Shown in pieces: positions 1,962 through 5,864 of a DNA stretch of 7,605 bases. Source of the stretch: Deltaproteobacteria bacterium (GTDB lineage: Bacteria; Desulfobacterota; Desulfobaccia; Desulfobaccales; 0-14-0-80-60-11); contig JAMCQY010000266.1 of the NCBI GenBank assembly GCA_023381945.1, positions 1 to 7,605 of the forward strand, in the 5' to 3' direction. Position 1 is the stretch's first letter; every line of letters starts with the position of its first letter. The notes beneath the pieces are model-generated. The model had not been told where the DNA came from. It did not search any database and saw only the letters and a program-made list of their open reading frames with translations. Both the position numbers and the translations under genes were made by a program.

Positions 1962-2378
1962 ATGGCAAGATATGGCTACGTAGAATTTTATTACAGCACT
2001 AAACACACGCCAGTCGATAAATATAAATGCGACAATGCCAATGTGCTGAACCTGCTGAAAAGCGTGGGGGCGCATGGGGTAGAGACCGCGGCCATCGACT
2101 TGGGCGACAACCCGGATCCCTTCCGGCAGTACCACAAGGCCTCCAGCGGCCCTGCCTCCGAGTACCGCCCAATTTTCGGCGAGGTGCGCGGTTCGGATTA
2201 TAAAGAATATTTCGGCAAGACCATTCCGGCCCTCTGTGTTTATACCAAAAAGGGTGACCGGGCTCCGGTTGAGGTCCTGCCCCGCATGGACCATAAGCTG
2301 GGGAGGGTTTATCTGATCGAAGAATGGCTGGAAAATTATGTAGCCGAGCTCGAAGGCCGCATCGAAGCCACGAAGTAA
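1962..2378 (+). CDS. Uncharacterised protein, possibly thioredoxin-like fold without CxxC
   Basis: I do not recognise this 138-residue protein. The start is well supported: GGGAGGAGG (1946-1954) lies 7 bases before the ATG, a candidate promoter lies upstream, and a strong terminator follows 12 bases after the stop. There is no signal peptide or membrane segment. The pattern suggests a small alpha/beta protein: an N-terminal strand YGYVEFYYS (4-12), helix NANVLNLLKSVG (26-37), strand ETAAIDL, then GKTIPALCVYTKKG, where Ile-Pro between strands resembles the cis-proline of thioredoxin folds, and an acidic C-terminal helix. The two cysteines are far apart and form no CxxC. Fold assignment is inference only. 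It is transcribed alone, divergently from the HisI-like gene. Confidence 0.85.
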   Translation: MARYGYVEFYYSTKHTPVDKYKCDNANVLNLLKSVGAHGVETAAIDLGDNPDPFRQYHKASSGPASEYRPIFGEVRGSDYKEYFGKTIPALCVYTKKGDRAPVEVLPRMDHKLGRVYLIEEWLENYVAELEGRIEATK

Positions 2379-2470: not shown

Positions 2471-3046
2471 TTACCTGCCTGCGTGGCCGCATTGTTCCCG
2501 CGCGCCTGGATAGACCCTCAGTAATTCCCGTAAGACTTTTTCGTAAATTTCATAAGCCGCGTGACCGAACAGGACGAAGCGGGCCAGTTTAATCTCGGGG
2601 TGCTGGGACAGGTAATCCATGACCGTCTTTAGGGCGATCCGGGCCGCGTCCCCCATGGGATAGCCATAAGCGCCGGTGGAGATGGAGGGGAAGGCCAAGG
2701 AGTCAACCCCCTTGCTGGAAGCCAGCATCAAGCTCTCACGATAGCAAGAAGCCAGCAGCTCGGCCTCGCGCCTGCCGCCGCCCTTATAGACCGGTCCCAC
2801 GGTATGGATGACGTAGCGGGCCTTGAGGTTGCCGCCGCTGGTAAGGCGGGCCTCGCCGGTCGGGCAGCCGCCGATTTGCCGGCACTCTTCCAGGATCTTG
2901 GGGCCGCCGGCCCGGTGAATGGCCCCGTCCACCCCGCCGCCGCCCAGCAAGGAGGAGTTGGCGGCATTGACGATGGCGTCCACGTCTTGTTGGGTGATAT
3001 CGCCTTCCACCAATTCCAAACGAGACTCACCGATCTTTACTTGCAT
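2471..3046 (-). CDS. Macrodomain protein (ADP-ribose binding / O-acetyl-ADP-ribose deacetylase-like)
   Basis: The 191-residue product is a single macrodomain of the MacroD/YmdB type, which binds ADP-ribose and in characterised members hydrolyses O-acetyl-ADP-ribose or removes mono-ADP-ribose from proteins. Visible motifs are VEGDIT (13-18), DAIVNAANSSLLGGGG (23-38) with Asp40 in the following VDGAIHRAGG (39-48), the position of the catalytic aspartate, HTVGP (81-85) and FPSISTGAYGYP (119-130) around the distal ribose and phosphate. All key residues look intact, so activity is plausible. Length is usual for the family. The ATG at 3044-3046 has only a weak AGGA 10 bases upstream. The gene lies 100 bases downstream of the thioredoxin-like selenoprotein gene on the same strand, separated by a palindrome, so co-transcription is possible but not shown. 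Substrate is unknown. Confidence 0.95.
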   Translation of the reverse strand: MQVKIGESRLELVEGDITQQDVDAIVNAANSSLLGGGGVDGAIHRAGGPKILEECRQIGGCPTGEARLTSGGNLKARYVIHTVGPVYKGGGRREAELLASCYRESLMLASSKGVDSLAFPSISTGAYGYPMGDAARIALKTVMDYLSQHPEIKLARFVLFGHAAYEIYEKVLRELLRVYPGAREQCGHAGR

Positions 3047-3146: not shown

Positions 3147-3722
3147 TTATTTGTTGATCAGGCGGTAGTGGTCCGCCTGTTTGGTCCAGGTGCTGTGGGG
3201 AAATTTGGCCGTTAATTCATCATAGGCTTCCCGTAAAGGCTTGGGGTCATGGCTCATCTTGTATTTCGCCACCCCCAGGAAGAATACGGCCTCGGCCGCC
3301 GCGTCCTTATCCGGGTAGCAGGAGATGACCTCTTCAAAGATGGCCCGGGCCTCGGGCAACTGGTCCGTATCCAGGGCCCACCTGCCTTTGGCCGTCTCCA
3401 GGGTGGCGATCAGATCTTCCGGCTTAAAGAAACCTACCGCCCGGTAATGCTCCTTGCCATCGGCGTCCAGCACCAGCAGGGTGGGGGTCCAACTCACTGA
3501 AAATCTCTCCATCATCGCCTTATTTGAGGTTTCAATCTGCACTGGAATAAAGTTCAGGGAAATAAATTTGGCCACCCGCTCATCGGGGTACGTAACTGCA
3601 CCCATCTGTTGGCAGCCCAGTCACTGGGGATTGAAAAAATCGAGAAAGATAGGTTTATTCACTTTTCCGGCGGTTTCTTGAGCCTTGAGCAGATCATTCA
3701 ACCAACAAATTTCTATTGCCAT
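3147..3722 (-). CDS. Thioredoxin-like selenoprotein (UxxC; TGA at 3621-3623 read as Sec34)
   Basis: Conventional calling starts this gene at the internal ATG 3605 (152 residues), which discards half of a thioredoxin domain. Reading upstream in the same frame gives an ATG at 3720-3722 with AAGGGAG 9 bases before it, 33 residues ending KPIFLDFFNPQ, one TGA, then LGCQQMGAVTYPDERVAKF. The TGA sits exactly where the first Cys of the redox motif belongs (DFF-x-P-x-[C/U]-x-x-C), giving Sec34-Leu-Gly-Cys37 in a 191-residue protein. The rest is normal: ERFSVSWTPTLLVLD with the cis-Pro TPT, then a TPR-like helical tail (about 110-190). No signal peptide is evident, so a cytoplasmic thiol/selenol oxidoreductase is likely; its partner is unknown. 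A stem-loop fitting a bacterial SECIS follows the TGA. The alternative is a nonsense mutation of Cys. Confidence 0.8.
3586..3603 (-). promoter_or_regulatory. Candidate bacterial SECIS stem-loop
   Basis: On the minus strand GGGTGC (3603-3598) pairs with GTACCC (3591-3586): six pairs including one G-U, closing the loop AGTTAC. The loop has G at its second position, 25 bases after the last base of the TGA. A G in the first two loop positions at roughly this distance is what is described for bacterial SECIS elements recognised by SelB. Found by eye, without energy calculation. A competing stem CTGC (3615-3612)/GCAG (3599-3596) is also possible. Confidence 0.45.
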
Positions 3723-4014: not shown

Positions 4015-4881
4015 ATGCAAGCCAAATGTCAAGTGCAGGAAACGGAAGGGCGCGAGCTCGATTCTTATGACCTGATCACGGTACTGGGACTCCTGAAGGA
4101 ATATGATTGGAAGGAAATCTGGCGGCGCTACGGTCCGGGCGGCACTACCTCCGGGAAGATCAACCTGATGCTCAGTCTCGCAGACTACTATGTGGAGATG
4201 ACCCTGGAGATGCTGGCTTCGCTGGCCTTGTCGCCTAAGTACCAGGCGTCTCCCAATCTGATGCAGTCCTTGATCCGCCGTCTGCTCTGCAGCCACCGCC
4301 ACGGCCTTATTCTGGATAAGCTGAAGAGCTACGGGGTTCCCATAGAAGATGAGAACCAGATCAACCTCTCATGCTCGGTGGGCACTATTGGGGTGGACAT
4401 GGTGGTAAACCGCGCCCCCAAGACCTCGGAATACCGTTTCCGCAAGTTCGGCACCAGCCGGGTGGAGCAGGAGGAACAGCGTCCCTTGGATCACTACGAT
4501 GTGGTTTCCATCCTCTATCTGGCCCAACAGAATCGCACCGGGCAGGTGTTGCAGCGCTACGTGCCCCAGGAGATCCTGAATGAAGGGGCTGAAGGTGAGC
4601 AGGTGGTGCGCTTTAAAAGTCTGGCCGGCGAATATGACGTGGATTTCTTCTTCCAGCGCATCCACAATGACGTGCCTCGCGGGATGCCGGTCCGGGGCAA
4701 CGTCTCCTCTGCCACCATGCATAACATCCTGCGCCGTCTGTTCGCCGGTCATGCCCCGGAGCTGACGGTCAAGGAACTGACGGGCAAAGGCATTGTCATC
4801 ACCCAGGACGAGGTCTACCAGGGTTTCGACCTGGCCCGCATCCTCAACGATAACTTCATCGAAGTGCATTTTAAACGGTAG
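4015..4881 (+). CDS. Uncharacterised protein built of two tandem copies of one domain
   Basis: I do not recognise this 288-residue protein. It has no signal peptide, membrane segment or obvious catalytic motif, and appears cytoplasmic and rich in helices. It contains an internal duplication: LDSYDLITVL (15-24) matches LDHYDVVSIL (158-167); RRY (37-39) matches QRY (180-182); SLADYYV (54-60) matches SLAGEYDV (202-209); SLIRRLL (85-91) matches NILRRLF (237-243); LDKLKSYGVPIEDEN (100-114) aligns with VKELTGKGIVITQDE (252-266). Each unit is about 120-130 residues, joined by a basic, polar linker (about 133-157). The start is supported by GGAGG 6 bases upstream and a good promoter. Immediately downstream lies a glyoxalase remnant in another frame. 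Function unknown; the layout suggests an intramolecular dimer, perhaps a ligand- or protein-binding regulator (inference only). Confidence 0.88.
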   Translation: MQAKCQVQETEGRELDSYDLITVLGLLKEYDWKEIWRRYGPGGTTSGKINLMLSLADYYVEMTLEMLASLALSPKYQASPNLMQSLIRRLLCSHRHGLILDKLKSYGVPIEDENQINLSCSVGTIGVDMVVNRAPKTSEYRFRKFGTSRVEQEEQRPLDHYDVVSILYLAQQNRTGQVLQRYVPQEILNEGAEGEQVVRFKSLAGEYDVDFFFQRIHNDVPRGMPVRGNVSSATMHNILRRLFAGHAPELTVKELTGKGIVITQDEVYQGFDLARILNDNFIEVHFKR

Positions 4882-5165
4882 AGGAGGAAGGTACGGCGGT
4901 CGAACTCTACCTTTACGTAGAAGACGTGGATGCCGCGCACCGACGCGCAGTAGCCGCGGGCGCCAAGGAGGTCATGCCGGTTCAAGAGATGTTTTGGGGC
5001 GACCGCATGGGCAGCTTGGAGGATCCCTTTGGGCACCGTTGGTAGGTGGCGGCCCGCGTCAAGGACTTATCCCCGGAAGAAATCATTAAGGGGGCTGGCG
5101 AGTTTTTCGCTTCCATGCAAAAGCAGCTGAAAGGATTTTATGGATGGAGAGCAGGGCGGGAATAG
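4881..5165 (+). pseudogene. Remnant of a PhnB/VOC glyoxalase-like gene
   Basis: One frame from 4881 reads AVELYLYVEDVDAAHRRAVA, then AAGAKEVMPVQEMFWGDRMG and SLEDPFGHRW, an amber stop at 5043-5045, then VKDLSPEEIIKGAGEFFASM to a TAG at 5163-5165. This is the second half of a PhnB-like vicinal-oxygen-chelate protein, a family of small metal-binding proteins related to glyoxalase I. The first half is missing: a stop lies in frame at 4872, inside the upstream gene, and no usable start with a ribosome site exists. Homology clearly continues past the amber codon, so the stop is a later lesion. The gene is therefore a 5'-truncated, interrupted relic transcribed behind the two-domain gene. Family assignment from motifs is firm; the exact subfamily is not. 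Confidence 0.82.
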
Positions 5166-5737: not shown

Positions 5738-5742
5738 CTTTT

Positions 5743-5852
5743 GAGTACTGAGTACTGAGCACTAAGTACTGAGTACTCAGTGGAAAGCTTCGTATCTCAA
5801 ACTCAGCACTCAGTACTCAGTACTCAGTACTCAGTACTCGGAACTCAGAACT
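5743..5852. repeat. Inverted array of 7-bp tandem repeats (GAGTACT / CAGTACT)
   Basis: The left arm holds five heptamers in series (5743-5777): GAGTACT twice, GAGCACT, AAGTACT, GAGTACT. The right arm (5804-5852) holds seven: CAGCACT, four CAGTACT, CGGAACT, CAGAACT. The two arms are reverse complements: 5743-5780 pairs with 5802-5839 with about 4 mismatches in 38, around a 21-base centre (5781-5801). It could form a long hairpin or cruciform. It fills most of the gap between the divergent universal stress and GAF-GGDEF genes and contains no gene. Confidence 0.9.
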
Positions 5853-5864
5853 CCTACAAACCCC

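What the first reader, a model, noticed from the sequence alone, without database searches (positions are those of the whole stretch)
3147..3722. Hidden thioredoxin-like selenoprotein with a Sec-Leu-Gly-Cys active site
Seen: a normal ATG (3720-3722) with a well-spaced ribosome site opens a frame broken by a single TGA (3621-3623), and homology to thioredoxin folds runs unbroken across it (KPIFLDFFNPQ before, LGCQQMGAVTYPDERVAKF after). Known: many Desulfobacterota carry selenoproteins, and Sec commonly replaces the first Cys of a CxxC redox motif. The TGA falls exactly on that residue. A random nonsense mutation would be unlikely to hit just that codon while leaving the rest clean. Automatic annotation would miss the first 39 residues and the active site.
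Basis: partly seen in the sequence, partly recalled or inferred. Interest (0 to 1): 0.87.

Follow-up and report, generated by a model that had tools for sequence, protein, structure and literature searches.

The report
Overlooked selenium-using thioredoxin-like protein
A bacterial gene that databases cut short at a "stop" signal almost certainly reads that signal as the rare selenium-containing amino acid selenocysteine, and so makes a complete thioredoxin-like redox protein that related bacteria from several phyla also carry.

Summary
The selenocysteine (Sec) reading is strongly supported. All 34 related loci found in named genomes have TGA at the first residue of the UxxC site. In 395 phylum genomes, 80 of 91 long matches carry exactly one TGA; of the other 11, nine read TGC (Cys) there. 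A hairpin after the UGA meets the published bacterial SECIS rules in the window; its six pairs form in 53 of 57 genes, against 3.4% under synonymous codon resampling. All 75 TGA-form genomes have SelB or tRNA-Sec; four of nine genomes with TGA-less forms lack SelA, SelB and tRNA-Sec. AlphaFold2 gives a DsbD-gamma-like thioredoxin fold with a TPR-like tail. Database entries mostly start after the TGA, cultured hosts included; no NCBIfam model reaches cut-off. Most likely a cytosolic Sec-dependent thiol-disulfide oxidoreductase. Sec insertion, chemistry and client are inferred. It may overlap the listed but here uncheckable "thiol:disulfide interchange protein" selenoprotein.

The parts
3147..3722 (-). 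Full gene of the TPR-tailed thioredoxin-like selenoprotein, 191 codons and TAA
3732..3736 (-). Ribosome binding site GGGAG, 9 nt before the ATG at 3720-3722
   Evidence: sequence
3621..3623 (-). TGA codon 34 read as Sec; first residue of the U-L-G-C site (Cys37 at 3612-3614)
3586..3603 (-). SECIS-like hairpin: 6-bp stem GGGUGC/GUACCC, 6-nt loop AGUUAC, 23 nt between UGA and loop
3387..3722 (-). Thioredoxin-fold domain, about residues 1-112; residue 34 stands just before helix 35-44; invariant W78-T79-P80 at the cis-Pro loop position
3150..3422 (-). C-terminal helical TPR-like tail, about residues 101-191
   Evidence: BamD, YbgF, YfgM matches
3147..3605 (-). 152-aa ORF from Met40 that gene callers report instead (lacks the active site)
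2471..3046 (-). Macro-domain (O-acetyl-ADP-ribose deacetylase-like) gene downstream on the same strand; found downstream on the same strand in 14 of 17 loci L001-L017 (not in L003, L016, L017; L016 ends about 60 bases after the gene)

Best explanation
The gene encodes a bacterial selenoprotein. SelB with Sec-tRNA reads UGA codon 34 as selenocysteine because a SECIS hairpin follows it in the coding sequence (conserved UGA, hairpin and machinery: shown by comparison; insertion itself: inferred). The product is a 191-residue protein, cytosolic as judged by eye from its N-terminus, with a DsbD-gamma-like thioredoxin domain whose Sec34-Leu-Gly-Cys37 pair should reduce or isomerise disulfides through a selenenyl-sulfide intermediate, plus a short TPR-like tail that probably holds a client or partner (fold: predicted; chemistry and client: inferred).
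For: (a) 34 of 34 loci have TGA at this site, in bins named as Deltaproteobacteria/Desulfobacterota, Planctomycetota, Gemmatimonadaceae and Acidobacteria/Terriglobia; 32 in direct alignment, L033 and L034 one codon off through an alignment shift that closes. (b) In 395 phylum genomes 80 of 91 long matches (129 bits or more) have exactly one TGA, the other 11 no stop (counted); of those 11, nine have TGC, one GAT, one GAG. (c) SECIS: all six pairs form in 52 of 56 relatives plus the window; mean synonymous-codon null 3.4%. Cells paired 95.8% against 89.3% shuffled, covariation score 0.325 against 0.199 (0 of 500 shuffles reach either) and at most 0.210 when slid. Folding z -1.16 (se 0.12, n 57) at the TGA and -0.77 at +15, which overlaps the hairpin; all other windows between -0.45 and +0.33. 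The published bSECIS constraints with E at or below -7.5 are met by 41 of 57 at the TGA, against a mean of 4.1% (maximum 23%) at 149 codon positions more than 30 nt away. (d) Machinery: 72 of 75 TGA-form genomes have SelB over cut-off and the other three have tRNA-Sec. (e) L097, the best-scoring TGA-less form (TGC), falls inside a clade of UGA forms (100/99) and its genome gave no SelA, SelB or tRNA-Sec. (f) Model pLDDT 96.1; DsbD-gamma and DsbH among the best matches. (g) The same gene ends at an ordinary TGA in 17 of 17 loci L001-L017, so TGA is not reassigned there.
Against: No protein-level or 75Se evidence. The window's own genome is not held. Folded whole, the window's 51 nt prefer a competing structure (-15.4 kcal/mol; z -0.42, 61 of 200 shuffles as stable); the conserved hairpin alone is -8.4. 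In the window alone the bSECIS rule passes at 26 of 170 codon positions, seven of them around the TGA, so the force is comparative. Of 57 genes, 16 do not reach -7.5 under the rule and four do not form the consensus stem. In one search two of the five measures are not unusual (pairs changed on both sides 3, reached by 63 of 500 shuffles; further pair types 7, by 73 of 500). In one search the 11 TGA-less genes, a small noisy set, also dip elsewhere (-1.32 at +45). Five of nine genomes with TGA-less forms do have Sec machinery. L097 is a long branch whose place the tree tool calls unsure. The role of the tail is a guess.
Confidence: 0.93

Rival explanations
1. The TGA is a nonsense mutation or sequencing error in an ordinary CxxC thioredoxin gene.
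For: A single-base change from TGC or TGT gives TGA, and the window on its own cannot tell.
Against: Same TGA in 34 of 34 loci and 80 of 91 long matches. Purifying selection before the TGA, dN 0.05 against dS 1.01 with L001. Hairpin kept beyond synonymous expectation.
Confidence: 0.01
2. A shortened protein: translation really starts at Met40, and the N-terminal piece is untranslated or a short peptide.
For: Gene callers mostly report the ORF from Met40: 84 of 120 listed hits have 152 aa.
Against: No Shine-Dalgarno-like sequence before Met40 (CUGGGCUGCCAACAG). L001, L002 and L003 have Leu there. The predicted thioredoxin fold uses strand 25-30 and the active-site residues. Codons 1-33 are conserved as protein.
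Confidence: 0.02
3. TGA is read as another amino acid (for example Trp under code 4) or by nonspecific read-through.
For: One database entry, P0233, shows Trp at this place, perhaps because it was called under another code.
Against: TGA is the ordinary stop of the same gene in L001-L017. The position is Cys in nine of 11 TGA-less long matches. SelB or tRNA-Sec accompanies the TGA form in 75 of 75 genomes.
Confidence: 0.02
4. Not a rival to Sec but to novelty: it is simply the selenoprotein already tabulated as 'thiol:disulfide interchange protein' (PF13098, UxxC, WP_011366075.1).
For: Same Pfam domain and motif in the review table. The older list places that family in Syntrophus and two Geobacter species, and related loci here include bins named Geobacter, Pelobacter and Syntrophaceae.
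Against: The sequence of that entry could not be fetched. Database names for the cultured Geobacter relatives seen are truncated hypothetical proteins, and no NCBIfam model reaches its cut-off on six members tested. A separate tail-less U/CPHC thioredoxin family in genomes of L001's class fits that name at least as well.
Confidence: 0.4

Closest known systems
Selenoprotein 'thiol:disulfide interchange protein' / Trx-like 2 (PF13098, cd02953, UxxC; table rows seen in PMC13188914, PMC2398784, PMC1794560)
   Same: Thioredoxin_2 / DsbD-gamma-like domain, Sec as first residue of UxxC, listed from Deltaproteobacteria
   Different: Sequence could not be compared; the rows seen mention no TPR-like tail. 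A tail-less U/CPHC family in related genomes is the alternative match
DsbD C-terminal (gamma) domain, PDB 1vrs, 1uc7, 2fwh
   Different: DsbD-gamma is a periplasmic CxxC domain of a membrane protein (recalled); this is a free protein with Sec and a tail, without an obvious signal peptide
CnoX / YbbN chaperedoxin (PDB 3qou)
   Same: Thioredoxin domain followed by a TPR domain
   Different: EcCnoX has two five-helix TPR subdomains; here only about 90 residues, matching BamD/YbgF-type TPR repeats. No Sec was mentioned in the passages read
VPGUxxT, Trx7/PDZ and TsoB (seleno)protein models of NCBIfam
   Same: Weak matches, in or around the thioredoxin part
   Different: All far below curated cut-offs (21-59 bits against 275-805)

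Membership tests
Bacterial selenoprotein | Conserved in-frame UGA at a redox position | tested here: met
   34 of 34 loci; 80 of 91 long matches in 395 genomes
Bacterial selenoprotein | Cys homologues aligned to UGA | tested here: met
   TGC in nine of 11 TGA-less long matches; GAT and GAG in the other two
Bacterial selenoprotein | bSECIS: 3-9 nt loop, 4-16 bp stem, G in first two loop positions, 16-37 nt spacing, MFE at or below -7.5 | tested here: met
   Window: 6 nt, 6 bp, G at loop position 2, 23 nt, -8.4 (rule). 41 of 57 genes meet all. Caveat: the window's whole 51 nt fold differently
Bacterial selenoprotein | selA, selB, selC in the organism | tested here: inconclusive
   Own genome not held. 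Kin: SelB over cut-off 31 of 34; tRNA-Sec at 67 bits or more 29 of 34; nearest kin G001 has both
Bacterial selenoprotein | Selenium in the protein | not testable with these tools
   Needs 75Se labelling or mass spectrometry
DsbD-gamma-like thioredoxin (PF13098) | Profile score over cut-off | tested here: met
   44.6 bits, cut-off 27, with C for U
DsbD-gamma-like thioredoxin (PF13098) | Fold, CxxC-type site at start of helix 1, cis-Pro loop | tested here: met
   pLDDT 96.1, helix 35-44 after residue 34, invariant C37 and W78-T79-P80 over 31 rows; the cis bond itself was not examined
Listed selenoprotein 'thiol:disulfide interchange protein' | Full-length similarity to WP_011366075.1 | not testable with these tools
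   Record not found in the collections at hand; only table rows were seen
CnoX/YbbN chaperedoxin | Thioredoxin plus large two-subdomain TPR | tested here: inconclusive
   Thioredoxin plus short TPR-like tail; 3qou matches with TMq 0.41, rmsd 11.9
CnoX/YbbN chaperedoxin | Holdase activity and transfer to GroEL | not testable with these tools
   Biochemical

The most novel reading that the evidence does not exclude
A distinct, nearly Sec-fixed selenoprotein family, a miniature 'seleno-chaperedoxin': a DsbD-gamma-like U-x-x-C thioredoxin joined to a TPR arm that holds its client. It would be widespread in anaerobic Desulfobacterota and anammox-type Planctomycetota and missed by annotation because callers restart at a start codon shortly after the Sec. 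It converts to Cys when a lineage loses the Sec machinery.
Probability: 0.35. Interest if true: 0.68.

Novelty: new variant of a known kind. Interest (0 to 1): 0.52.

Why it matters
Automatic annotation removes the active site from most database copies of this family, including entries from cultured Geobacter and Syntrophotalea, so its redox role has been easy to miss. In the phylum sample it is nearly always Sec (80 of 91 long matches), while a tail-less thioredoxin-like family in related genomes occurs in both Cys and Sec forms; this suggests the selenium matters for its job. The Cys form inside a Sec clade, in a genome where no selA, selB or tRNA-Sec was found (L097), is a natural comparison for asking what Sec buys. 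The cultured hosts make a direct 75Se or proteomics test feasible.

Tried and rejected
Nonsense mutation, sequencing error, start at Met40 and global TGA reassignment were considered and rejected (see rivals). Rfam on the window gave seven matches, all below gathering score, four of them miRNA models on a 7-bp repeat array. The viral collection gave no match to the patterns. Dinucleotide shuffles of the window's 51 nt did not single out the hairpin (z -0.42); the synonymous-codon null over 57 genes did. Rfam tRNA-Sec at its gathering score rings in 5 of 14 control genomes, so I counted only stronger matches: 67 bits or more (none lie between 51.6 and 67), 62.8 or more. P0051 (full N-terminus, residue shown as C) was not counted as a Cys form: the tools write U as C, so I cannot tell. 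P0233 (Trp there) was set aside too. In one search only matches of 129 bits or more were counted as long (the next is 91.8 bits), two of the TGA rows cover only profile positions 3-144, and the first look scored at most eight candidates a genome, so counts are lower bounds. Five of nine Cys-form genomes with Sec machinery speak against a strict 'no machinery, then Cys' rule. The alignment behind the AlphaFold model held 31 of 35 available sequences (window plus 34 loci; L014, L029, L030 and L032 were left out as near-duplicates or fragments), with Cys for Sec. The SECIS set of 57 leaves out second fetches of genomes already counted (L067-L073, L075-L077) and the TGA-form phylum matches never fetched as loci. 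The ten loci were picked by me, some because marked a TGA, so the Sec share of that second family is not a random sample. The tree's bootstrap had not settled, and L100, L027 and L097 are long branches. The Fisher tests ignore kinship. Paper searches that could have named this family: (listings of 2, 1, 0, 4 and 0 papers), besides 41, 48, 51 and 73 on side questions; none of the listings or passages seen named it, but the library holds only open-licence papers, and Kryukov and Gladyshev 2004 (recalled) was not seen. Of PMC13188914 I saw passages and parts 1-2 of 3 of section 7; of PMC1088965, PMC1794560, PMC1914089, PMC2398784 and PMC8129009 passages only.

Full report
What is there. The window is 7,605 bases of a bacterium close to a Deltaproteobacteria bin: the nearest locus, L001, is 83% identical over the protein and holds all eight window genes that were compared; a close database relative, P0051, is named Desulfobaccales. 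On the minus strand an ATG at 3720-3722, with GGGAG nine bases upstream, opens a frame of 191 codons that ends in TAA and contains one TGA, at 3621-3623. Under the standard code only 152 codons from Met40 remain. The full frame scores 44.6 bits against Pfam Thioredoxin_2 (cut-off 27); the 152-codon part scores 26.2.

The TGA is conserved. Of 120 listed database hits (248 in all), 84 are exactly 152 aa: gene callers mostly start at the Met six codons after the TGA. Cultured relatives are entered in the same way (Syntrophotalea acetylenica 157 aa, Geobacter hydrogenophilus 152 aa, Geobacter sp. SVR 154 aa). In genome contigs, 34 loci encode relatives. In 32 the aligned codon is TGA, and in the other two (bins named Terriglobia and Acidobacteria) the TGA is one codon off, which the multiple alignment resolves. 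Two Planctomycetota loci carry a second tandem copy, also with TGA. In the class of L001, 20 of 29 genomes have a full-length match, each with one TGA; the other nine have only shorter, weaker thioredoxin matches. In 395 genomes of the phylum there are 91 long matches (129 bits or more): 80 with exactly one TGA, in 75 genomes, and 11 with no stop, in nine other genomes. At the site those 11 read TGC nine times, GAT once and GAG once; only three of the 11 (L097, L098, L100) also keep the second Cys of the motif. The 33 codons before the TGA evolve as protein (dN 0.05, dS 1.01 against L001), and dS in codons 35-55 is lower than in codons 68-191 in four of five comparisons, L005 being the exception, as expected if RNA structure restrains them.

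A SECIS element. After the UGA, nucleotides 21-38 form a 6-bp stem with a 6-nt loop (window 3586-3603). The loop's second base is a guanine that is invariant over 57 sequences. In 52 of 56 relatives and in the window all six pairs form; resampling synonymous codons gives this on average in 3.4%. Two pairs covary, G-C with A-U (25 and seven sequences), and in one clade the encoded residues change with them (Gly to Asn, Pro to Ser). Percentage paired and covariation score exceed all 500 shuffles and every slid register; the number of pairs changed on both sides and the number of pair types do not stand out (63 and 73 of 500 shuffles). The published rule set for bacterial SECIS (PMC13188914 passage) is met by 41 of 57 genes at the TGA and by 4.1% on average, at most 23%, at other codon positions. 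Folding energy relative to the synonymous null is low in the windows that hold the hairpin (-1.16 and -0.77) and not elsewhere in the TGA genes; the 11 TGA-less genes show no clear dip at the site (-0.39, se 0.35) but a noisy one at +45. Three of the four genes without the consensus stem have a different hairpin in the right range, two of them below -7.5 kcal/mol. Against this: the window's whole 51 nt prefers another fold, and one sequence alone would not prove the element. In the 11 TGA-less genes the stem is not intact: one to four of six pairs form.

The machinery. No genome is held for the window. Of the 34 relatives' genomes, 31 have SelB over cut-off and 29 a tRNA-Sec of 67 bits or more. 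Of the three without SelB over cut-off, two (G015, G020) have tRNA-Sec and SelA over cut-off; the third (G024) has a C-terminal SelB piece and a SelA piece below cut-off that ends at a contig edge. Over the phylum sample, 72 of 75 TGA-form genomes have SelB over cut-off, against 353 of 395 overall; the three exceptions all have tRNA-Sec, two of them SelA as well. Of the nine genomes with TGA-less forms, four gave no SelB over cut-off, no tRNA-Sec and no SelA, and five have SelB and tRNA-Sec. L097, the best-scoring TGA-less form, lies inside a clade of UGA forms (100/99 support, though on a long branch), and its genome is one of the four: a Sec-to-Cys change with loss of the trait is the simplest reading.

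How it likely works. Inference from family knowledge: the selenolate of Sec34 attacks a disulfide or other oxidised sulfur of a client, Cys37 resolves the mixed selenenyl-sulfide, and a cellular reductant regenerates the pair; the tail holds the client or partner. The thioredoxin-plus-TPR plan recalls CnoX/YbbN, but the tail is much shorter and no chaperone evidence exists.

Known or new. The 2026 inventory lists one selenoprotein with the same Pfam domain and motif, 'thiol:disulfide interchange protein' (WP_011366075.1). An older list puts it in Syntrophus and two Geobacter species, and the GOS paper has a Trx-like 2 (thiol disulfide interchange protein), cd02953. I could not fetch that sequence. 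In genomes of L001's class there is a second, tail-less family of about 110 aa: of ten copies that I picked, four have UPHC (TGA), four CPHC, one CSHC and one CGHC. It may be the listed one. No NCBIfam model reaches its cut-off on six members tested. I therefore call it a new variant of a known kind, with a real chance that some members were listed before under that general name.

Noticed in passing
window 4884-5162 (+): C-terminal half of a glyoxalase/VOC gene (PF00903, E 9.9e-9) without its N-terminal half, with an in-frame TAG at 5043-5045 and more in-frame codons after it (the later piece has no Pfam match): probably a decayed remnant next to the conserved 288-aa gene.
   Followed up: partly
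window 5742-5853: Two 7-bp tandem arrays (TGAGTAC, ACTCAGT) that are reverse complements of each other; they coincide with four sub-threshold miRNA matches.
   Followed up: partly
window 4015-4881 (+) and 1962-2378 (+): 288-aa and 138-aa genes without any Pfam match at E up to 1 or NCBIfam match, yet conserved near the selenoprotein gene in several related loci.
   Followed up: partly
L109, L110, L111, L117 (TGA) and L108, L112-L116 (Cys): A second, tail-less thioredoxin-like family of about 110 aa in genomes of L001's class, with EGUPHC or C-P/S/G-HC site: Sec in four of ten picked copies.
   Followed up: partly
L024:6001-7142 and L030:6001-7142: Tandem paralogues of the selenoprotein in Planctomycetota bins, both with TGA.
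   Followed up: no
P0233: Database protein of this family with Trp at the Sec position, perhaps predicted under a TGA=Trp code.
   Followed up: no
L101 and L107 (genomes G354, G257): Divergent TGA-less homologues with Asp or Glu at the catalytic position, in genomes that have SelB and tRNA-Sec.
   Followed up: no
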